20,468 nt of DNA from a virus, in the IMG/VR virus record IMGVR_UViG_3300043446_001244, positions 1-20,468 of that record; one strand, given 5' to 3'. The notes under the pieces are model-generated. The model saw only the letters and a list, made by a program, of their open reading frames with translations. It ran no database searches and was not told the DNA's origin. Shown piece after piece: positions 1 through 17,937 of this stretch. The position numbers were made by a program, and so were the translations under genes. The stretch's first letter is position 1. The number at the start of each line of letters is the position of its first letter.

Positions 1-75
1 CAGGATTTTTAAAGTCTCTCCATGACTACGAGGGGGTTTCCCGACCAGGGTGCTTTTTGAGTCATCCCAAGACTA

Positions 76-147
76 TAGGGACACTGGGAGTTGAACCCAG
101 ACTAACCCGTTATAAGCAGGCCGCTCTAACCATTAAGCTATGCCCCC
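76..147 (-). tRNA. tRNA-Ile (anticodon UAU)
   Basis: A 72-base cloverleaf can be drawn on the minus strand. The acceptor is GGGGGCA/TGTCCCT (with G-U pairs) and the discriminator is A. The D arm is GCTT/GAGC. The anticodon stem GCCTG/CGGGT closes the 7-base loop CTTATAA, and the T arm is CTGGG-TTCAACT-CCCAG. U33 precedes the anticodon TAT, which reads AUA (Ile). CCA is not encoded. The UAU anticodon is uncommon in bacteria, which normally read AUA with a lysidine-modified CAU tRNA. It lies just downstream of the small-gene cluster and may be co-transcribed with it. Confidence 0.9.
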
Positions 148-156
148 ATACATTAA

Positions 157-1050: not shown

Positions 1051-1121
1051 AGCGGGTAACGAGATTCGAACTCGTGACTCCAACTTGGAAGGATGGCATT
1101 TTACCCCTAAACTATACCCGC
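1051..1121 (-). tRNA. tRNA-Gly (anticodon UCC)
   Basis: A 71-base cloverleaf on the minus strand. The acceptor GCGGGTA/TACCCGC is perfect, and the discriminator is T as expected for glycine. The D arm is GTTT/AAAT. The anticodon loop CTTCCAA has anticodon TCC, and the T arm is ACGAG-TTCGAAT-CTCGT. The acceptor and D-arm region closely resemble cyanobacterial and plastid trnG-UCC as I remember it. The anticodon stem CCATC/GTTGG has one U-U mismatch (third-to-fourth pair), which is odd. CCA is not encoded. A G+C hairpin at 1128-1145 lies just 5' of it in the transcript and could help processing. Confidence 0.93.
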
Positions 1122-1919: not shown

Positions 1920-2112
1920 CATTATAGAATTGACCCGTGATATAGTCCAAAGAAAGAACTTCAATATCTTTTTCATCTACAATCCAATCACGAATTTCTT
2001 CATAAAGGGATGAAGCATCTTCTGCTCTTCCTTCTGCACACAAATCATGCATTCTATCAATAATTCTATCAAGTTCCTTCTGACAAAGTTTTTTCAATTC
2101 CTTTCTGTTCAT
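1915..2112 (-). CDS. small acidic helical protein (65 aa), unknown
   Basis: Starts MNRKELKKLCQKELDRIIDR at ATG 2112 and runs 65 codons to TAA at 1915-1917. The N-terminal half is a basic/acidic amphipathic helix. The C-terminal half (SLYEEIRDWIVDEKDIEVLS) is acidic. It overlaps the last 44 bases of the GIY-YIG gene, so translation is probably coupled. A longer frame back to 2178 exists but would overlap even more and starts with a poorly supported codon. There are no catalytic motifs. Function unknown. Confidence 0.65.
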   Translation of the reverse strand: MNRKELKKLCQKELDRIIDRMHDLCAEGRAEDASSLYEEIRDWIVDEKDIEVLSLDYITGQFYNE

Positions 2113-2527
2113 AATAATCTTTTCTAAAGTATCTTGATAGAATATTGCTATTGTAGTACATAGGGGTTCCATCGTCAAGAGATTCAGTTAAGACATTATT
2201 TAAGAATAGTTGACGTGTTTCTTCATAGTTGGTTTTACCAACTGTCGAATGTAAAGATAATATGGTTCTGGTAAACTGTTCCTTACCATACTTCTTCACA
2301 TCTTCTTTTAATTCTGGACAAGAACCATAATACTTTTTCCAATCACTTTCTTGTTTTACTTTTCTTTTCTTACCTTTAGGAGTTCTAAAAGACCAAAAAT
2401 ATTTCCTACCAATATATCTCCTATTTGTTGGAACACATTCAATAAGATAAACAAAACCAAAGTTACCTTGAATATTATCTGTATCAAAAATTTCCCCAAG
2501 ATATCGCCAAGGATTCTCATAGGACAT
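2069..2527 (-). CDS. GIY-YIG nuclease-like protein (152 aa)
   Basis: GFVYLI at residues 24-29 and RYIGRKYF at 37-44 form the GIY and YIG motifs with normal spacing. They are followed by a basic KGKKRKVKQESDWKKYYG segment typical of a T4-like phage nuclease family. GIY-YIG proteins cut DNA, either as homing endonucleases (T4 Seg) or in repair. This one lacks an obvious DNA-binding extension and is not inside an intron, so free-standing nuclease or structure-specific roles are both possible. ATG at 2527 is used. It has two promoter candidates upstream: sigma70-like at 2576-2604 and late-like at 2549-2556. Its 3' end overlaps the 65-aa gene. Confidence 0.78.
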   Translation of the reverse strand: MSYENPWRYLGEIFDTDNIQGNFGFVYLIECVPTNRRYIGRKYFWSFRTPKGKKRKVKQESDWKKYYGSCPELKEDVKKYGKEQFTRTILSLHSTVGKTNYEETRQLFLNNVLTESLDDGTPMYYNSNILSRYFRKDYYEQKGIEKTLSEGT

Positions 2528-10924: not shown

Positions 10925-11861
10925 TGTTAATATCTTTCAGAACCTTAGATGCTGCTGCAGCAAGTTTGTCATAACGACCTTTCACCTTTCTATTTGATGC
11001 TGGTGCTGCTGGTTTTGGAGTTGGAGTTGTTTGAACTTTTCCTCTGGTTCCAGAAGATCTCATACCAGCAAGAACAGTTTCTCCTTTGCTATGAATTGCT
11101 GCAGTTCTTTCTGCTTCTTTCTTTTGTGCTGTTCTTTGAGCAGGAGTCATAGTTCTTTGAGACCTTTGTGATGCAGGTCTCATCTTAGACTTTTTTGGGT
11201 CAAATACTGCCTCATCAAGATTTTCAAATGCATCTGGTCTATTTGAAAGATACTCAAGAATAGAATCAAAAGATTCTCTTGTCATAGATGCTTTTTGAAG
11301 TTGAACACGAGCCATATCTGCTCTGATTTGAGCTTGTGCTGCTCTTCTCTTAGCAGATGCCATTTGGGTATCTGTAACATTCATAGTTTCAGCATCACCT
11401 CTTGCTGGCATTTCAGCAGTTCCTTCATTAAGTTCAGCAGACTCATAAATCTCAGTCATTTCGTCCCAGGTAAATTCTGAGAGGTCATAACCTTCTTCTA
11501 CAAGTTCACTGACCCATGCCTCAACTTCTTCCTTCATTCCCAGTTGTGGATTAATGGTAACTGTATTTTTACCTTTCATTACATCAACTTTTTTATCTGC
11601 ACCCTTTGAAACCTTATTTTCAATTTCTACAAGAGATTCTTCCTTTACACTTGAGGTATCTTGACCATCTGGTTTTCCACCTTTCTTTCTCTGAATGGCA
11701 TTATGAACTGCACCACGATACTCTTTAGCACCACTTTCTACTTTACCATCCCCATCATAATCTCTCTTGGCCTTCTCTTCTTCAAGTTTGGTATAAGGAT
11801 CATCCATTTCAAAAAATGGTTTCCTGACCTCTTCAAATGATTGTGTCCAAATGTTAGTCAT
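10920..11861 (-). CDS. virion/internal-type protein with EF-hand-like loop (313 aa)
   Basis: Residues 34-39 (DYDGDG), within RDYDGDGKVESGAKEYRG, match the DxDxDG start of a calcium-binding loop. The rest is Lys/Glu/Ala-rich. A middle segment (MASAKRRAAQAQIRADMARV) is predicted helical. The C-terminal third is Thr/Pro/Ala/Lys-rich and low complexity (TPTPKPAAPASNRKVKGRYD). I recall cyanophage virion proteins with 'DYDGDGKvES...EY.G' near the N-terminus. No enzyme motif is seen. A TATAAATA element at 11890-11897 lies 28 bases upstream, so late expression is likely. It follows the cytidylyltransferase-like gene with a 4-base overlap. Probably a capsid-internal or scaffold-type protein. Confidence 0.75.
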   Translation of the reverse strand: MTNIWTQSFEEVRKPFFEMDDPYTKLEEEKAKRDYDGDGKVESGAKEYRGAVHNAIQRKKGGKPDGQDTSSVKEESLVEIENKVSKGADKKVDVMKGKNTVTINPQLGMKEEVEAWVSELVEEGYDLSEFTWDEMTEIYESAELNEGTAEMPARGDAETMNVTDTQMASAKRRAAQAQIRADMARVQLQKASMTRESFDSILEYLSNRPDAFENLDEAVFDPKKSKMRPASQRSQRTMTPAQRTAQKKEAERTAAIHSKGETVLAGMRSSGTRGKVQTTPTPKPAAPASNRKVKGRYDKLAAAASKVLKDINR

Positions 11862-13126
11862 TTAACTTTACTTACGGTTTTCCTTATTTTATTTATAGAA
11901 TCCACTGTTGCTCCTGGGGTCATAGATGCTACGTATTTTGTATATCCAGAGGTTCCAACTAATGTATTAGGATGTATTTTATCTCTCATAATCTTATCCA
12001 TTTTTACTTCTGTATATTCACAAACATCTTTAATCCAAGACTTAAACATAATCCCATCTTCAGTCACACATATTAGATGATTGGCACCAGAACGAATTAC
12101 TTCTCCTCTAAGTCCTGTATGAGTACTTTCTACTTTAGACCCAACTCTAAAAAGATGACCAAAGATATAATTTTCTCTTAGTCCCTTCCAATCATACTCT
12201 GGAGCAATCTCCCAAAGATTATATCCTTCTTTCACATTCATAGATTGCTGCAAATCTGCAAACAACTGCTTTGATTTTTTGAAATTTTTTGGAAGCATTT
12301 TTTTGAACGACTCAAAATCATTTTCTGCCACTGCCTTTCTTGCTGCATCAGAAGCAACATCTGCATCTTTTGGTCCAGCAGAAATTACATTCATACTTGT
12401 ATAATCATACAACTGACCGTTGTTTTTGTTTGCAAGATTATCAATTTCAGATACTCTTTCTGCACCACAAACAATATTGACTCCAGTATATCCTTCTTGA
12501 TTTAAGAATGTAAGAACATCAAAGATAGTAACAAATTCATCACTATCAATAATATTTTCTGCATACTCAGGAAACATTTCCTTCATATAAGAAATCTTTA
12601 AATCTGGGTCTAATGGATTCTGTTTTCCATCCTGAGACCTACTTGGGAAGATGTAAAAGTTTCCTTCAGTTGCAGTTTGTTTTGCAGTGCTGAATGCTTT
12701 TTGATGTGAAACTGTTGGTGGATTAAACTTACCAAACACTACAGTGGCAACTTCACCTCTTGAATCTTTTTTAGGTGCTGCTCCTGCTGGAGGTTTTCCT
12801 GTTGCCCCAGTTGTTGCAAGTGCCTTAGTTCTCTGTGCTGTTGGTTGTTGTGGTTTGGTTCCTAATCTCTTTGGTGCTGGTTTTTGTTTCTTTGCTCTAC
12901 CTTGTTTTACATCAGCAGGTTTTTGTTTCTTTTGTTCTTCTTCCTCACCACCTTTTTTCTTCTTCCCACTTATAAATTCAAGTTGACCTTTAAATGTTCT
13001 TGCTACTCTCTGTTTCTGTTTGTCAATCCAATATCCATGCCCATCACCAACTAACCCAAGCTTATGTGCTTTCTGTGCTGCTTGGGATGTTCTTGCTTCT
13101 AAAATAAATTCTGAAAATCTTTTCAT
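11858..13126 (-). CDS. cytidylyltransferase-like modular virion-associated protein (422 aa)
   Basis: Residues 1-55 are a conserved-type head (AHKLGLVGDGHGYWIDKQKQ). A basic low-complexity linker follows at about 55-120 (KKKKGGEEEEQKKQK). The Rossmann nucleotidyltransferase-like domain begins EVATVVFGKFNPPTVSHQ at about residue 125. TVSH replaces the usual [H/T]xGH signature, and SDAARKA may be the remnant of the ISSTxxR motif. After the domain, FRVGSKVESTHTGLRGEVIR gives a KOW-like beta module, and the C-terminus ends with VGTSGYTKYVASMTPG. Such composite proteins are, as I recall, common in T4-like cyanophages and are sometimes found in virions. Activity is uncertain because of the altered motif. 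Start ATG 13126 overlaps the prior TGA. Confidence 0.78.
   Translation of the reverse strand: MKRFSEFILEARTSQAAQKAHKLGLVGDGHGYWIDKQKQRVARTFKGQLEFISGKKKKGGEEEEQKKQKPADVKQGRAKKQKPAPKRLGTKPQQPTAQRTKALATTGATGKPPAGAAPKKDSRGEVATVVFGKFNPPTVSHQKAFSTAKQTATEGNFYIFPSRSQDGKQNPLDPDLKISYMKEMFPEYAENIIDSDEFVTIFDVLTFLNQEGYTGVNIVCGAERVSEIDNLANKNNGQLYDYTSMNVISAGPKDADVASDAARKAVAENDFESFKKMLPKNFKKSKQLFADLQQSMNVKEGYNLWEIAPEYDWKGLRENYIFGHLFRVGSKVESTHTGLRGEVIRSGANHLICVTEDGIMFKSWIKDVCEYTEVKMDKIMRDKIHPNTLVGTSGYTKYVASMTPGATVDSINKIRKTVSKVK
11890..11897 (-). promoter_or_regulatory. late promoter (TATAAATA)
   Basis: Perfect TATAAATA near the 3' end of the cytidylyltransferase-like gene, 28 bases upstream of the 313-aa gene's ATG. 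Confidence 0.72.
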
Positions 13127-13347
13127 CTATTGATTTCTGAATATATCAAATCTTGGTTGCTACGAATATATTGCAATCCAAGTTTTTTTACTTGTAAATA
13201 TTTATCTTTCTTATCTTTAGGGTCTTTATATTGGTCTACAAAACTTACATAAAACCTGCAAAAATTTTCAATAGTTTGTTTTTTCAGTTGCCTAATGCGA
13301 ATGCGTTTCTTATAAAGTATCACAAGTTCTTTAAAAAAATCTTCCAT
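13123..13347 (-). CDS. small basic protein (74 aa), unknown
   Basis: Lys/Ile/Gln-rich helical product beginning MEDFFKELVILYKKRIRIRQ and continuing LKKQTIENFCRFYVSFVDQY. It contains an acidic-basic KDPKDKKDKYLQ segment. Both ends overlap neighbours: TGATG with the methyltransferase and ATGA with the cytidylyltransferase-like gene. That links the modification pair to the following virion genes in one reading chain. No motif is recognised. Basic charge would fit nucleic-acid or partner-protein binding, but this is not evidence. Confidence 0.68.
   Translation of the reverse strand: MEDFFKELVILYKKRIRIRQLKKQTIENFCRFYVSFVDQYKDPKDKKDKYLQVKKLGLQYIRSNQDLIYSEINR
13199..13206 (-). promoter_or_regulatory. 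late promoter (GATAAATA)
   Basis: GATAAATA on the minus strand, inside the 74-aa gene and 72 bases upstream of the cytidylyltransferase-like gene. Matches NATAAATA; support is sequence and position only. Confidence 0.45.
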
Positions 13348-14114
13348 CAGGAAAGTAGCGTAAATATATCCCTTTCAGTATTTACCTCAATACCACATTC
13401 TTCAGTAAACTTCTCAAGGTCTTTCTTAGATGGATTGTAAATTCTTTCTCTTGCCATGGCATGATAGTCATCAGACAAATCAAATCCAATATAATCATGT
13501 CCAAGAAGTCTGGCAGCAAGTCCAGTAGTTCCCGAACCACTATAAGGGTCAAGAATTAATCCAGGTTCTTGGAGAACACCTTGAATACAACGCAAAGGGA
13601 GAATGATAGGAAATGGTGCAGGATGAGGATTCTTCATCTCGGGACCAAACTTCCAGACACTACCATAATTTACAGACCTTCTGGGAAGTTTAGGACGCTT
13701 TGCACCTTTGCACAACCAATAGATTCTCTCATCAATCTGCGTGAATCTATATCCAGAAATCTCTGGGCCACTTCCCCTATTCCAAATGATCTCTTCTCTA
13801 ATGTGCCACTTGGTCTTAGGCAACCATTCCCATGGAGAAGTTGCATTACCATTCAGATACCTAACCTTATGATTATAGAACAGTGAACCTCCTTCTTTGG
13901 TTTTGTCAAACAGAACATTCAGCAGTTCAATCTGCTGCTCCTGATAAACATCCTCTGGAAGTGAATCATCAAACTTATCATATTCAATTTTACGAAACAA
14001 TCCACCACCAATCTTTTGTTTGTTGTATGGTGGTGAGGTTACAGTGCAATCAATAGAGTTGTCATCAAGTTGTTTTGCCAACTCAATACAATCTCCAGTT
14101 CTCAGATCAATCAT
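13347..14114 (-). CDS. DNA methyltransferase (N4-cytosine/N6-adenine, beta type)
   Basis: TSPPYN at residues 26-31 is motif IV (SPPY), and DPYSGSGTT at 189-197 is the SAM-binding motif I. The order IV then I indicates a beta-class amino-methyltransferase. SPPY is frequent in N4-cytosine enzymes, but N6-adenine targets are not excluded. A middle segment (REEIIWNRGSGPEISGYRFT) fits the target-recognition area. 255 aa is compact but complete. It methylates phage or host DNA in the cell, possibly as protection against restriction. The 335-aa unknown gene lies 4 bases upstream, and the next start overlaps its TGA. The target sequence cannot be read from here. Confidence 0.92.
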   Translation of the reverse strand: MIDLRTGDCIELAKQLDDNSIDCTVTSPPYNKQKIGGGLFRKIEYDKFDDSLPEDVYQEQQIELLNVLFDKTKEGGSLFYNHKVRYLNGNATSPWEWLPKTKWHIREEIIWNRGSGPEISGYRFTQIDERIYWLCKGAKRPKLPRRSVNYGSVWKFGPEMKNPHPAPFPIILPLRCIQGVLQEPGLILDPYSGSGTTGLAARLLGHDYIGFDLSDDYHAMARERIYNPSKKDLEKFTEECGIEVNTERDIFTLLS

Positions 14115-14118
14115 AAGT

Positions 14119-15126
14119 TTAAAATGTCATTTGAATACCAATTTTTTCTGGTTTTTCTCTTGTTGGATTTAATGTCATATCTCCATTGGAATCACTTCCA
14201 AAAGGACCAGCTCTTCCTTTACCTACAATAGATGCTCCTTTAACTGCATTGGAAAATTTTGGTTTGCCATTCCCAGTGCTTTCAATTTTATAGCTAAAAG
14301 CAAATAATTGTTTGGTATTGTAATATAAATTTGTAAATTCAATTAGTGATGAATTGATAGTAGGTAACTTTGACCAAATTTCAATTTGTTTTTCTAATGC
14401 ATTAGCATAGAATGAGATCATTTTTTCAGGAAGTTCTGTTGAGTTTCCTGGAATTAAAACAGAATCTTGTTCTCTTTTTTTACCAACTAACTCATCTAAA
14501 ACTCCACCACCTTTACCACCTTCACCATAAATTGCAATATAAGGTCCAAGTTTTGCAGAATTGACACTTAAAACCTTCATCAAACTCAATATCTCTTTAA
14601 ATTTTTTGTTATTTGATTTATTAATTAAATTTACAAAATCTTTATTGCCTACAATATCTCCTGGTTTAAGAGTGTTTGTTTTTCCTGTTGGCATTTTTAC
14701 TGTCACTTCAGTGCCATTTATAGAAAAATCATATCCACTCTGACTCACACTATTTGGAACTCCTACAGAAGATGATTCAGTAAAAGTAGTTTTTTTATTA
14801 ATTTCTTTATTTTCAACTAGAGAAATTGGTCCTATCACTTCTGCAAAATATTTTTCTATTTCTTTTAAAGAATTAGGACTATCACCAGTAGGAGTTGATT
14901 CTAAAACTTTTTTAAGAGCAGAATATCCTGGAAAAGATTTTGATGAACCAGCATTATTGATAAGATGTTTGAGGTAAGGTGCATAGTTGGGGTCAACCAT
15001 GTTAAATTCACGAATTTTTTCATCAATGGCAGATAGAACAGCCCTTTTGTATGAGGTAACAGTAGGGTAGGTTCCACCCAAACCCAACTCTGTTGGCTTT
15101 AAGCTTGGTCCTTTAAACTTAGACAT
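14119..15126 (-). CDS. unknown protein paired with the methyltransferase (335 aa)
   Basis: Not firmly recognised. Visible elements: AEVIGP at 95-100, GYDFSINGTEVTVK at 131-144, then TNTLKPGD at 150-157. The pattern of an early Glu, then Asp, then xVxVK on a strand is compatible with a PD-(D/E)xK nuclease core, although the usual ExK acid is replaced. The C-terminal region (SIVGKGRAGPFGSDSNGDMT) is Gly-rich. No transmembrane segments are seen. It stops 4 bases before the methyltransferase ATG, so the two are likely co-expressed. A restriction-like partner, nuclease or modification accessory is possible; a virion or unrelated role cannot be excluded. Confidence 0.8.
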   Translation of the reverse strand: MSKFKGPSLKPTELGLGGTYPTVTSYKRAVLSAIDEKIREFNMVDPNYAPYLKHLINNAGSSKSFPGYSALKKVLESTPTGDSPNSLKEIEKYFAEVIGPISLVENKEINKKTTFTESSSVGVPNSVSQSGYDFSINGTEVTVKMPTGKTNTLKPGDIVGNKDFVNLINKSNNKKFKEILSLMKVLSVNSAKLGPYIAIYGEGGKGGGVLDELVGKKREQDSVLIPGNSTELPEKMISFYANALEKQIEIWSKLPTINSSLIEFTNLYYNTKQLFAFSYKIESTGNGKPKFSNAVKGASIVGKGRAGPFGSDSNGDMTLNPTREKPEKIGIQMTF

Positions 15127-15143
15127 TTACTTATAGTTTATTA

Positions 15144-15554
15144 TTATCTATCGTCTTCTGAACGATTTTCAGAATAGAATACATCAAAAGCACCCTCAGG
15201 ATAACGCTTCATCAGTTTGTCCACATTCTTTGAGATGACATAATCAATAGGAACTTCCAAAGCAATACATGCCTGCATCACATACCACATCAGATCACCA
15301 AGTTCAGTGATGAGATGATCTTTATTATCTTGGTTCCAGGGCTTACCTTGGAAAATCATCTTCTTCACAATTTCAAGAAACTCACCACCTTCAGCATTGA
15401 TACCAACACCAGCAGTCAGGAGTCGTTCAATATTAGCACCTTTACGATCCAGTTCTACAATACGATCAGAAAATGCTACAAAATCTTTTGATGCATCAGA
15501 TGTGACAGCATCTACAAAGTTTTGATACTTGTTAAAATCTACTTTGTCCATCAT
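15144..15554 (-). CDS. mazG: MazG-type nucleotide pyrophosphohydrolase
   Basis: MazG enzymes hydrolyse nucleoside triphosphates to monophosphates; in cyanophages they are thought to adjust nucleotide pools. EGGE (Glu55, Glu58) and ELGD (Glu84, Asp87) give the ExxE...ExxD metal site of the all-alpha NTP pyrophosphatase fold. The following SKNVDKLMKRYPEGAF is typical of the family end. 136 aa is one MazG domain. ATG 15554 overlaps the gp41 TGA; a second ATG follows directly and could be the true start. Its place beside gp41, uvsX and the polymerase suits nucleotide management during replication. Confidence 0.92.
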   Translation of the reverse strand: MMDKVDFNKYQNFVDAVTSDASKDFVAFSDRIVELDRKGANIERLLTAGVGINAEGGEFLEIVKKMIFQGKPWNQDNKDHLITELGDLMWYVMQACIALEVPIDYVISKNVDKLMKRYPEGAFDVFYSENRSEDDR

Positions 15555-16930
15555 ACAAATTTAAAACCTTCGAATTTACTTTTTTTAGAGTCGTCCTCAT
15601 TATTATATTCCTCTTCTTGTCCAGAGTCAAGAATATCTTTCTGAGCACTTTGTTCACAATCATAGAGTCTCATTTTTGCTCTATCAATTCCAACTACAAA
15701 TCTTTTATTGATAGTTGGATCATTATATCTATTCTTTAATTGCTTTACCATAATTTGTCCCATCTGCTCAAGTTCTTCTGTACTAATAAGGGCAAACATA
15801 AGATCAGCAGTAGCAGGGAGACCAAAGGACTCAGAAGTATCAGTAAGTTCAACATCGCTATTGCCATAACCACTACGAGTGGTTTGAGTAGCAGAAACGA
15901 TTGGAACGTTGAATTCAACTGCCAAACCCCTAAGTTCCTCTGCAATTGCTTTAACATATGAATAAGAATTGACAGAAAAATTTGACTTATACCTACTGGA
16001 AGCACAAATGTTAAGGTAGTCAATGAAAATAATATTAGGTCTAAATGATTTCTTAAGAGAAAGTTCATTTAAGAGTGATTTAAAATGACCTACATGTGCT
16101 GATGCAGTTGGATATTCTTTGATGATTATTGTTCCCTGTGTTTTTTTAGCAATAGTATTCACTTTGCTCTCAAACATAGGTTTGGGAAGTTCAACAATAT
16201 CTTTAATATTTACATTCAGGAGATTCGCATCAATTCTTTCAGCAATCCTGTCTTCTGCCATTTCAAGTGTAATGTAGAGAACATTGAGCCCTTGCAGGAG
16301 GATGGAGCTAGCCATGTGGCACATGAATAGACTTTTGCCGACGCCTGTACCAGCAAGAGCGATATTGAGAGTCTTGTTAGGGAGACCACCTTTTGTAATT
16401 TTGTTGAAGTATTCAAGGTCAAAGGGGATTTTGTCTTCTTTTCTGTGATAAGATTCATATCTTTCTTGGTAGTCATTTAAGTAGTCGTGTCCAATGTGAT
16501 TATCAAAACTTACAGCAAGTGCCTGTTGTAAGATTGATGGAATTGCATCTCGTGATTTCTTTTCATCTTGCCCATCTGCAATCTTAATAGATTCCATGAG
16601 AGCAAGATAAATCGCTTTATCTCTACACCACTTTTCAGTGGTATCTACAATCCAATTAGTTTCTGATGGTTCATCATCTAATTTAGAAAAATAATCACAG
16701 ATGACCTTATATGTATCCTCTGTAATATCAATTCTTCTTTCAACTTCAATTAGAATAATTTCTTTAGTTGGAAGATTGTCATAGGAAAGAATGAACTTAC
16801 AAACTTCTTCAAAAATGACTTTCTCGTGGAAATTTTCGAAGTATTCAGACTTGATAAAAGGTAGTACTTTTCTGCAGTAATCATTATTAAACAGTAGATT
16901 TTTTAGAATTGTATTTTCTACTTTTTCCAT
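15551..16930 (-). CDS. 41: replicative DNA helicase gp41 (T4-type, DnaB-like)
   Basis: Hexameric 5'-3' helicase that unwinds the fork and partners the gp61 primase. The Walker A is AGTGVGKS at about 193-200 and Walker B IIFIDYLNI at about 300-308. The sensor is SATQTTRSG, and KQLKNRYNDP carries the arginine-finger region. The N-terminal helical domain precedes them. 459 aa is close to T4 gp41 (475). ATG 16930 shares a base with the uvsX TGA (TGATG) and has GGAGGG just upstream, although the spacing is short; GTG at 16933 is the alternative. The C-terminal tail is acidic then basic (EEEYNNEDDSKKSK). Confidence 0.95.
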   Translation of the reverse strand: MEKVENTILKNLLFNNDYCRKVLPFIKSEYFENFHEKVIFEEVCKFILSYDNLPTKEIILIEVERRIDITEDTYKVICDYFSKLDDEPSETNWIVDTTEKWCRDKAIYLALMESIKIADGQDEKKSRDAIPSILQQALAVSFDNHIGHDYLNDYQERYESYHRKEDKIPFDLEYFNKITKGGLPNKTLNIALAGTGVGKSLFMCHMASSILLQGLNVLYITLEMAEDRIAERIDANLLNVNIKDIVELPKPMFESKVNTIAKKTQGTIIIKEYPTASAHVGHFKSLLNELSLKKSFRPNIIFIDYLNICASSRYKSNFSVNSYSYVKAIAEELRGLAVEFNVPIVSATQTTRSGYGNSDVELTDTSESFGLPATADLMFALISTEELEQMGQIMVKQLKNRYNDPTINKRFVVGIDRAKMRLYDCEQSAQKDILDSGQEEEYNNEDDSKKSKFEGFKFV

Positions 16931-17937
16931 CACCCTCCATATCTAAATTCTTTTTGTGATACTTCATCCAAGGCTTGGAGGATTTCCTTTGTAAAGTACT
17001 TCTCTGGATTCTCCATGATAGTTTTTCCAAATTGAGAAGTACCATCTCCGATATCATAACGAGTTCCCACTTTCTTAAAGATTTCGTATTTTTCAGCAAG
17101 ATCAAGGAGACCATAATACTTATCCAGACCACGTTCATCATAGTACAACCTCACCTCCACTGTTTTGTTTTCTTTACTCAAGCGTGATTTATGAGTTGTT
17201 GCCTTGATGATGTTACCAACAACTTCTGTTCCATCCTTCTCTTTCTTTTTAGAAAGATAGATGATTGTAGAAGCAGCATACTTAAGTCCAGAACCACCAC
17301 TCATTTCTTTTGTTGGAATGTAGGATCCAACAACATCATATGTATGATTGGTTACTATCATAGGAATTTTAGCTTGCCCAAGTTTCAGAGTCAACATTCT
17401 AAATGCACCTTTGACCAATTGTGATTTGGTCATGTCACGAACTTGTTTTTCATTCAGGGCATCATCAATTTCTTTCTCTGTAGAAAGCATTCCCAAAGAA
17501 TCAAGAACAAACATACAAGGTTTACGTTCACCTTCTTTGCGCTTGAGATACAAATCAACTGCCTTGAGTGCTTTGCTTCTAAACTCTTCAATAGTAACTA
17601 CATTAACTACAACAATCCTACTGGTATCAAGACCTCTGCTTTCCAACATGGACTTGGTTACTGCTGCTTCAGTATCAAAATACAAGCAGTATCCATCAGG
17701 ATTATTGGTAAGAAAATTCTTAACCACTGCCAGTGAGAAGAAAGTTTTTCCTGTAGAACTTTCACCTGCGATTGCAGTAATCTTATTGCCAGATACCCCA
17801 CCAAATATACTACCACTGGCAAGAGCATTAAAAATGTACGAACCTGTGTCCACATAAGTTTCAGATTCATCAATGTCTGCTGCAAGTTGTGTATATTCTC
17901 CACCAATTTCCTTTACAATATCTTTTAAGAAGTCCAT
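16930..17937 (-). CDS. uvsX: recombinase UvsX (RecA-like)
   Basis: Forms filaments on single-stranded DNA and drives strand exchange for recombination-dependent replication and repair. The Walker A is GESSTGKT at 58-65, catalytic Glu90 lies in FDTEAA, and Walker B is MFVLDSLG at 142-149. The DNA-binding loop region with [20 protein letters not shown] follows. 335 aa is slightly shorter than T4 UvsX (391), mainly at the C-terminus. ATG 17937 ([13 protein letters not shown]) is chosen, two bases after the polymerase stop; an in-frame upstream extension would overlap the polymerase. The gene sits between gp43 and gp41, a usual cyanophage order. Confidence 0.95.
17366..17394 (-). promoter_or_regulatory. 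possible internal sigma70-like promoter in uvsX
   Basis: TTGACT (17394-17389), 17-base spacer, TAAAAT (17371-17366) inside uvsX. It could add expression of gp41 and mazG, but coding constraint makes a chance match plausible. Confidence 0.25.

What the first reader, a model, noticed from the sequence alone, without database searches (positions are those of the whole stretch)
13347..15126. DNA methyltransferase tightly linked to an unrecognised 335-aa protein with a possible nuclease-like core
The SPPY-type methyltransferase is clear. The gene 4 bases upstream has an E...D...xVxVK pattern (AEVIGP, GYDF, VTVK) followed by TNTLKPGD, compatible with a degenerate PD-(D/E)xK fold. A phage-borne nuclease and methylase pair could degrade host or rival DNA while sparing phage DNA. 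Seen: motifs and spacing. Known: beta-class methyltransferase motif order. Inferred: the nuclease fold and the partnership.
Basis: partly seen in the sequence, partly recalled or inferred. Interest (0 to 1): 0.55.

Follow-up and report, generated by a model that had tools for sequence, protein, structure and literature searches.

The report
Swappable nuclease-like gene in marine phages
The unknown gene beside a DNA-methylating enzyme in this cyanobacterial phage is predicted to have the core of a DNA-cutting enzyme, and it sits in a fixed genome slot where dissimilar genes replace one another between almost identical phages, so it is probably a weapon or self-spreading gene and not the methylase's fixed partner.

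Summary
A beta-class, N4-cytosine-like DNA methyltransferase (13347-14114, minus) lies 4 bases after an unrecognised 335-aa ORF (14119-15126, minus). A confident AlphaFold2 model (pLDDT 89) has the element order of restriction-enzyme cores, with those residues where the catalytic ones belong. The acid of (D/E)xK is always S or T and no PDB match is significant, so activity is unproven.

The partnership fails. The gene fills position X of a slot MazG-X-(Y)-cytidyltransferase of T4-like cyanophages. Of 80 methyltransferase loci with sequence upstream, X is the window's family in 11 and a family without detectable similarity (phrog_1462-like) in 69. On the methyltransferase tree the X label changes 10 times, as often as when shuffled. 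Of 58 loci of the window's family, 12 have the methyltransferase next. Near-identical phages differ by ORF-exact replacement of X with short divergent flanks. Sequenced S-RIM2 isolates show the same with a third family.

Best reading: a swapped conflict or homing-like nuclease, not half of a restriction-modification system.

The parts
14119..15126 (-). 335-aa protein X (family 'C10' here): predicted PD-(D/E)XK-like nuclease core, E96-D133-[S/T]xK144
   Evidence: ORF; invariant residues; model pLDDT 89.0, pTM 0.75; dN/dS 0.08-0.19 in five comparisons
14839..14841 (-). codon of E96 (helix 86-105), invariant
14728..14730 (-). codon of D133 (just before strand 134-136), invariant
14695..14703 (-). 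codons T142-V143-K144 (strand 139-144); S/T at 142 and K at 144 in 41 of 41
13347..14114 (-). beta-class DNA methyltransferase (PF01555), N4-cytosine type most likely; position Y of the slot
   Evidence: PF01555 E 1.1e-30; nearest solved chain 8s9m 'DNA cytosine-N4 methyltransferase' E 3.1e-46; motif order
15144..15554 (-). MazG-like pyrophosphatase, upstream border of the slot
   Evidence: phrog_229 E 4.5e-54
13123..13347 (-). 74-aa ORF of unknown function between methyltransferase and cytidyltransferase
   Evidence: no family below E 0.06
11858..13126 (-). cytidyltransferase-like protein (phrog_395), downstream border of the slot
   Evidence: phrog_395 E 6.7e-80
15551..16933 (-). DnaB/gp41-like helicase; most of the anchor used for near-identical pairs
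   Evidence: 2354 phage records at E 1e-40 or better; most listed ones annotated as primase/helicase

Best explanation
The 335-aa protein is a phage endonuclease-like protein with a PD-(D/E)XK-type core and an unusual E-D-[S/T]xK set of conserved residues. Its gene occupies a fixed slot (MazG - X - Y - cytidyltransferase) of T4-like cyanophage genomes. In that slot whole X genes, often without detectable sequence similarity, replace one another by recombination in the conserved flanking genes. X is not the cognate restriction enzyme of the neighbouring methyltransferase, which is one of several alternative Y genes. Most likely X cuts DNA of competing phages or other targets in the infected cell. 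Exchange of X changes what is cut, or what the phage is immune to, and cleavage by X may itself promote its inheritance. Shown here: residue conservation, a predicted fold, the slot, and the replacements with short divergent flanks. Inferred: nuclease activity, DNA as substrate, target, and the conflict or drive role.
For: E96, D133, K144 in 41 of 41 and S/T142 in 41 of 41. Model pLDDT 89.0: helix 86-105 (E96), strands 121-123, 134-136 (after D133), 139-144 (K144), helices between 155 and 188, strand 275-281. Top PDB ranks are restriction enzymes: 6uke Z 5.2, rmsd 4.0, 146 aligned; 3ndh. C2, the other common occupant, has its own invariant E20, D139, D145, S203-L204-K205 in 38 of 38. X is C10 in 11, C2 in 69, not seen in 1 of 81 loci; 10 label changes on the methyltransferase tree, shuffled mean 10.3. 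With about 1 kb upstream of MazG at least 98% identical, X is replaced in 16 and diverged in 1 of 40 pairs (7 distinct comparisons); MazG is replaced in 0 of 40, the methyltransferase replaced in 0 and diverged in 2 of 40. ORF-exact swap with tapering divergence in L002/L012 and ORF-exact swap in S-RIM2 isolates RW_12/RW_01. dN/dS 0.08-0.19.
Against: No PDB match is significant (Foldseek best E 2.6; VIA Z 5.2 is in the range the tool calls middling). C2 and the other X families were not folded; their kinship in fold with C10 rests on motifs. Many replaced pairs come from metagenome contigs and share loci. Flanks next to X were not closer between phages sharing the X family. No swap among the 48 ACG-2014d records listed at 99% or more. 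S-SRM01 has no X recognised by my models in the slot.
Confidence: 0.62

Rival explanations
1. X and the methyltransferase form a Type II restriction-modification pair: X cuts unmodified host or rival DNA at a site that the methyltransferase protects in phage DNA.
For: 4-base spacing and same strand; nuclease-like core; beta-class methyltransferase; in 80 of 80 loci with sequence upstream of the methyltransferase a C10 or C2 gene precedes it.
Against: Methyltransferases up to 99.2% identical stand next to different X families, and X identity falls to 29% where methyltransferases are 96% identical; X label unlinked from the methyltransferase tree; 35 of 58 C10-family loci have DUF6267 or cytidyltransferase as the next modelled gene; no PF01555 match in the records of S-SZBM1, S-WAM1, AG-345-F15, S-RIM2 and ACG-2014d, which carry X (W04-W08).
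Confidence: 0.06
2. X is an early host-takeover nuclease (host DNA breakdown or destruction of a host factor) that diversifies because hosts evolve resistance or inhibitors; swapping is ordinary recombination plus selection.
For: Lies among replication genes on the same strand; an X-like gene is in the slot in seven of the eight reference cyanophages opened (families); swap flanks need nothing beyond homologous recombination.
Against: A general host-DNA nuclease would not need dissimilar families to replace each other between phages that are identical nearby; S-SRM01 lacks a recognised X.
Confidence: 0.2
3. X has a restriction-enzyme-like fold but is not a nuclease (DNA-binding, structural or decoy protein); the S/T in place of the acid marks lost activity.
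For: S/T in place of D/E in 41 of 41 and S in 38 of 38 of C2; no significant PDB match.
Against: E96, D133 and K144 stay invariant while 324 of 335 positions vary in A4; restriction enzymes with a moved acid exist (passages of PMC551604 and PMC4652773).
Confidence: 0.12

Closest known systems
Type II restriction endonucleases of PD-(D/E)XK fold with a displaced acid (CCGG family: NgoMIV, Cfr10I, BsaWI); HhaI (6uke) and 3ndh as nearest folds listed
   Same: Glutamate, aspartate and lysine set (BsaWI E92, D145, K165; passage of PMC4652773); VIA best is 6uke, Foldseek first rank is 3ndh
   Different: No conserved acid 12-13 residues after the lysine (position 157 tested); no sequence similarity found; not linked to one cognate methyltransferase; no relative found in two pattern-limited scans of bacterial genomes
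Free-standing phage homing or marker-exclusion endonucleases (SegF, SegG, F-CphI; ICP1 HEGs)
   Same: Nuclease-like phage gene replaced together with short flanking tracts (concept from abstract, introduction and passages of PMC10448857; SegF and SegG from reference lists; F-CphI from a search listing)
   Different: No known homing domain; the slot holds one X or another and is seldom empty; dissimilar families replace each other
phrog_1462 (P-TIM68 gp156, S-RIM2 RW_12, P-SSM7, ACG-2014d, S-RIM14) and phrog_2496 (ACG-2014b; S-RIM2 RW_01 by 94.6% identity), function unknown
   Same: Same slot, similar length, D...SxK-type pattern
   Different: No detectable homology with the window protein by hhalign or hmmscan
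N4-cytosine methyltransferase, beta class (8s9m/8s9n; P-TIM68 gp157)
   Same: PF01555, SPPY, motif order; E 3.1e-46 to 8s9m; 80.2% to P-TIM68
   Different: Target sequence unknown; no fixed restriction partner

Membership tests
PD-(D/E)XK nuclease superfamily | alpha-beta-beta-beta-alpha-beta core | tested here: met
   Predicted model only: H86-105, E121-123, E134-136, E139-144, helices 155-188, E275-281, pLDDT 89.0
PD-(D/E)XK nuclease superfamily | Invariant D and K on the beta hairpin, helix E | tested here: met
   D133, K144, E96 in 33 of 33 and 41 of 41
PD-(D/E)XK nuclease superfamily | Acid two residues before the lysine, (D/E)xK | tested here: not met
   S or T in 41 of 41 rows; therefore called 'PD-(D/E)XK-like', not filed as a member
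PD-(D/E)XK nuclease superfamily | Significant similarity to a solved member | tested here: inconclusive
   Foldseek best 3ndh E 2.6; VIA 6uke Z 5.2, rmsd 4.0, 146 aligned; no relevant sequence match in PDB
PD-(D/E)XK nuclease superfamily | Metal-dependent DNA cleavage | not testable with these tools
   Needs protein
CCGG-family restriction enzymes (PD..K-x12-13-E) | Acid 12-13 residues after the catalytic lysine | tested here: not met
   Position 157 (K+13) is D in 12, E in 1, not acidic in 28 of 41
Type II restriction-modification system | Stable linkage of one nuclease family with the methyltransferase | tested here: not met
Type II restriction-modification system | Methylation blocks cleavage at a shared site | not testable with these tools
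   Needs assay
Homing endonuclease gene | Gene replacement with divergent (co-converted) flanks between near-identical genomes | tested here: met
   plain recombination can give the same pattern
Homing endonuclease gene | Recognisable homing domain | tested here: not met
   No Pfam or NCBIfam match over cut-off and no strong PHROG match for the C10 proteins scanned
Homing endonuclease gene | Cleaves the allele that it replaces | not testable with these tools
   Needs cross or cleavage assay
phrog_1462 | hmmscan match | tested here: not met
   Only phrog_18515 at E 0.043 for the window protein; hhalign C10 against C2 probability 0.1-0.8%
PF01555 beta-class DNA methyltransferase (the neighbour) | Pfam cut-off and motif order | tested here: met
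   107.7 bits against cut-off 26.7; SPPY 27, DPYSGSG 189

The most novel reading that the evidence does not exclude
T4-like cyanophages carry a nearly always occupied 'nuclease allele slot'. Several dissimilar families of E-D-SxK restriction-fold endonucleases compete for the same position, each able to cut genomes that carry a different allele and so convert the slot, with a few hundred flanking bases, to itself. This would be a multi-family, allele-against-allele gene drive or marker-exclusion system working in present-day aquatic phage populations, with the neighbouring methyltransferase or DUF6267 gene only a passenger or a modifier.
Probability: 0.3. Interest if true: 0.86.

Novelty: new variant of a known kind. 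Interest (0 to 1): 0.64.

Why it matters
It gives a nuclease-like fold prediction for a protein with no match over cut-off in Pfam or NCBIfam, none in PADLOC and only a weak one in PHROGs (E 0.043). It replaces a plausible restriction-modification story by another: of the genes compared in a conserved replication region of T4-like cyanophages, the one that is replaced as a whole between near-identical phages is a predicted nuclease. Sequenced S-RIM2 isolates differ by this gene in near-identical flanks, so what drives gene replacement between closely related lytic phages can be tested by mixed infection of a laboratory Synechococcus strain.

Tried and rejected
Restriction-modification pairing: rejected as the main reading. 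Homology between C10 and C2, phrog_2496, phrog_3560, phrog_22045 or the C14 gene by hhalign: nothing. P-TIM68 gp155, gp156 and gp159 as hidden homologues of the window protein: no significant match. First structure model from seven close sequences: pLDDT 42, not used. PDB sequence searches for X: no relevant match. Weak family matches not followed: phrog_16992 in 1 of 12 members (best E 0.0024); PF20760 (P23-45 gp39 N-terminal domain) for L093 at E 0.0037, 17.7 bits against a cut-off of 32.3. Relatives of X in bacterial genomes: none in two scans of genome contigs, pattern-limited. Phage records: none for the window protein or L048; E 0.7 through L025; S-SZBM1, S-WAM1 and AG-345-F15 through L098; none through L106. 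The VIA list shows only 6uke and 3ndh; other restriction enzymes are not excluded by that. Idea that flanks next to X are closer among phages that share the X family: not supported in the five-locus comparison (WIN-L002, both C10, no closer than WIN-L015). The 6 cytidyltransferase and 2 MazG 'replaced' cases proved to be contig ends. Searches for a paper on this slot found none in the held open library (listings and abstract starts only, apart from the papers named); subscription journals are not covered. The HhaI structure paper was not held; '3ndh = ThaI' and active-site details of HhaI are recalled and not relied on. Rows dropped: the truncated or late-start members L094, L136, L138, L153 (and L139, L154); C2 members under 380 aa or at least 90% identical to a kept one (34 kept of 69, plus 4 reference phages); loci with under 700 bases of methyltransferase or no upstream X (74 of 81 used); the G+C count uses the 63 loci in which all four genes were found; second fetches of a contig, and the window's near-copy, were dropped (58 loci, near-identical contigs not merged). 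One search returned the best 80 of 91 matching loci.
Full report
What is there. The window is a 20,468-base virus record, 99.8% identical over 12.3 kb to contig IMGVR_UViG_3300046804_003510. Gene order follows T4-like cyanophages (Kyanoviridae). P-TIM68 is the nearest phage record for the methyltransferase (80.2%) and shares the gene order; for the helicase the first listed record is S-SRM01 at 78.0%. On the minus strand run DNA polymerase, a RecA-like gene, DnaB-like helicase, MazG, the 335-aa ORF, the methyltransferase, a 74-aa ORF and a cytidyltransferase-like gene.

Methyltransferase. PF01555, 107.7 bits. SPPY at residue 27 precedes DPYSGSG at 189, the beta order. The nearest solved chains, 8s9m and 8s9n, are called DNA cytosine-N4 methyltransferase (E 3.1e-46), so N4-cytosine is the likelier product. 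The target sequence is unknown.

The 335-aa protein. No match over cut-off in Pfam or NCBIfam, none in PADLOC, best PHROG E 0.043, and no match in 50,697 phage records. Relatives came from viral contigs: 54 distinct contigs, plus L025. More distant relatives lie in phages S-SZBM1, S-WAM1 and AG-345-F15. In 33 aligned members (18-93% identity to the window) 11 positions are invariant: P11, Y51, E96, G99, D133, K144, N151, K154, G194, S252, G330. In 41 rows position 142 is S (30) or T (11) and position 245 is E (40) or D (1). Caveat: patterns that recruited members contained E96, N151-K154 or D133. In A2, whose 12 rows were reached through the methyltransferase or by patterns free of these residues, the three named residues are among 42 invariant positions. 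dN/dS against five close relatives is 0.08-0.19, so the gene appears to be kept functional.

Fold. With the 33-row alignment AlphaFold2 gives mean pLDDT 89.0 and pTM 0.75; helix 86-105 carries E96, strand 134-136 follows D133, strand 139-144 ends with K144, then helices up to 188 and strand 275-281. That is the element order of PD-(D/E)XK cores, with a helical insertion before the last core strand. Foldseek finds nothing significant in the PDB; its first rank is 3ndh, a restriction endonuclease with DNA (E 2.6). VIA-align's best is HhaI endonuclease 6uke (Z 5.2, rmsd 4.0, 146 residues); 3 of 168 chains reach Z 2. The tool warns that Z under 8 can be a common arrangement, so this is support and not proof. 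BFVD gives 7 structural neighbours at E 0.001 or better (best 4.4e-10); five are called uncharacterised and two have no name in the list.

Active site. E96-D133-[S/T]xK144 lacks the acid of (D/E)xK. In some restriction enzymes the acid has moved elsewhere (PD-XXK-E; passages of PMC551604), and BsaWI uses E92, D145, K165, D175 (passage of PMC4652773). Here position 157, 13 after K144, is acidic in 13 of 41; the acid at 245 is a candidate that I could not measure.

The slot. I built models of MazG, X (C10 = window family, C2 = phrog_1462-like), methyltransferase, DUF6267 and cytidyltransferase and ordered them on every fetched locus (E 1e-6 or better). The pattern is MazG - X - Y - cytidyltransferase. 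Of 58 C10-family loci the next modelled gene is the methyltransferase in 12, DUF6267 in 13, cytidyltransferase in 22, C2 in 1 (L093, both X families side by side), and none in 10, five of them L104-L108 from another phage group and the rest contig ends. No locus showed both methyltransferase and DUF6267. In ACG-2014f Y is a Dam-type methyltransferase. In reference phages X is phrog_1462, phrog_2496, phrog_3560 or phrog_22045; S-SRM01 has none that I recognise. In C2 the residues E20, D139, D145 and S203-L204-K205 are invariant in 38 of 38. The other families show a D...SxK-like pattern by eye, an observation and not a test.

X against methyltransferase. Of 80 loci returned for the methyltransferase (best 80 of 91) plus P-TIM68, the gene upstream is C10 in 11, C2 in 69, and missing from the contig in 1. 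Methyltransferases of L002 (C10) and L015 (C2) are 99.2% identical; among 813 same-family pairs with methyltransferase identity of at least 85%, X identity falls to 29%. On a tree of 74 methyltransferase genes the X label needs 10 changes (7 forced by well-supported branches), shuffled mean 10.3. A nuclease tuned to the methyltransferase's site should not behave so.

Replacement events. With the stretch 300-1300 bases upstream of MazG (mostly DnaB) at least 98% identical, 40 pairs (37 loci) qualify: X is replaced in 16 and diverged in 1; MazG is replaced in 0; the methyltransferase is replaced in 0 and diverged in 2; 6 cytidyltransferase losses are contig ends. The 17 pairs collapse to 7 distinct comparisons. 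With the cytidyltransferase end as anchor, X is replaced in 10 of 32, the methyltransferase in 0 (3 diverged), and 2 MazG losses are contig ends. In ten chosen pairs, 0 of 282 windows of 150 bases outside X and its flanks fall under 85%; the pairs were chosen for like flanks, so this shows locality, not rate. L002 against L012 is 99-100% identical for about 2.7 kb upstream, falls to 98, 94 and 82% over the last 450 bases before X and to 89-92% over about 600 bases after it, then returns to 99-100% for 1.5 kb. In 51 control pairs with the same X, identity next to X averages 99.6% upstream and 100.0% downstream.

Isolated phages. Of 60 S-RIM2 records listed of 319 matching records, 12 cover 99-100% of the S-RIM2 RW_12 region and 48 cover 79-81% at 97.9-99.3% identity. 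I opened three of the 48: RW_01 and Np_01 carry in the slot a 422-aa protein, R1_1999 one annotated as 382 aa, 94-95% identical to the phrog_2496 protein of ACG-2014b. RW_12 and W2_02 carry the same 390-aa phrog_1462 protein. Between RW_12 and RW_01 the match breaks 10 bases after the first base of X and resumes 10 bases after its last. Elsewhere windows are 99-100% identical, apart from those at the edges of X (94-95%) and a second difference about 2.4 kb downstream; Np_01 also differs in small ORFs just upstream of X. These phages have DUF6267 and no methyltransferase next to X. No swap was seen among the 48 ACG-2014d records listed at 99% or more. The isolates answer, for S-RIM2, the worry that metagenome misassembly made the swaps; single contig pairs remain open to it.

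Reading. X is a predicted nuclease under purifying selection in a fixed, exchangeable slot, poorer in G+C than MazG and methyltransferase in 63 of the 63 loci where all genes were found. Two accounts fit: diversifying selection on a weapon or host-directed nuclease, or a homing-like process in which cleavage favours the cutter's own allele. Local conversion tracts around a nuclease gene are what homing gives (concept in PMC10448857: abstract, introduction and passages read), but recombination with selection gives them too. The authors of PMC3037559 noted endonuclease-flanked exchange cassettes elsewhere in cyanophage genomes (passages). I found no description of this slot in the held library.

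Verdict. Observation confirmed; fold idea supported at the level of a confident model with a non-canonical active site; partnership not supported; the unexpected result is the swap slot.

Noticed in passing
window 2069-2527 (minus): SegE-like GIY-YIG protein (PF19835 'Putative endonuclease segE', E 1.1e-51) elsewhere in the same window.
   Followed up: no
L012 3949-4689, L028 1848-2618, L032 3919-4689, L043 3919-4689 and four more loci: An extra gene (C14, 246-256 aa) between MazG and C2 in 8 loci with a canonical-looking SDVK...VEVKM pattern; the one tested (L032) has no match over cut-off in Pfam or NCBIfam and none in PHROGs or PADLOC; possibly a second nuclease.
   Followed up: partly
L098 5370-6563; L116 10584-11480; P-TIM68 48424-49212: DUF6267 (PF19782) carries a KWDG motif like nucleotidyltransferase ligases (motif recalled) and alternates with the methyltransferase at Y; in P-TIM68, S-SRM01 and ACG-2014f a DUF6267 lies elsewhere in the genome, in P-TIM68 near genes annotated as methylases.
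   Followed up: partly
L118 11693-13929 (ACG-2014f): X of family phrog_3560 directly before a Dam-type methyltransferase (PF02086, E 1e-24): a different kind of methyltransferase at Y.
   Followed up: partly
L098 4058-4345, L110 4986-5300: Relatives of X without the methyltransferase carry an extra N-terminal stretch of about 95 aa; in S-SZBM1 it resembles a bacterial SH3 domain only weakly (PF08239 E 0.018).
   Followed up: partly
between the RecA-like gene and DnaB, e.g. L002 950-1502 (C5/C12 genes): A second variable slot: extra genes (2OG-Fe(II) oxygenase in annotated phages) present or absent between RecA-like gene and helicase.
   Followed up: no
L093 3736-5810: C10 and C2 in tandem in one contig, which may be an intermediate of replacement; the contig ends inside C2.
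   Followed up: no
L157 2387-3535 (S-RIM2 R1_1999): X is annotated as 382 aa against 422 aa in two other S-RIM2 isolates, with 381 residues at about 99% identity: possible frameshift or sequencing error.
   Followed up: no
L104-L108, e.g. L106 5986-7134: A distant 383-aa relative of X in another phage group with an insertion between D and SxK; no MazG or slot methyltransferase model hit in the fetched stretch.
   Followed up: no
window 75-148 and 1051-1121 (minus): tRNA-Ile(tat) and tRNA-Gly(tcc) genes.
   Followed up: no
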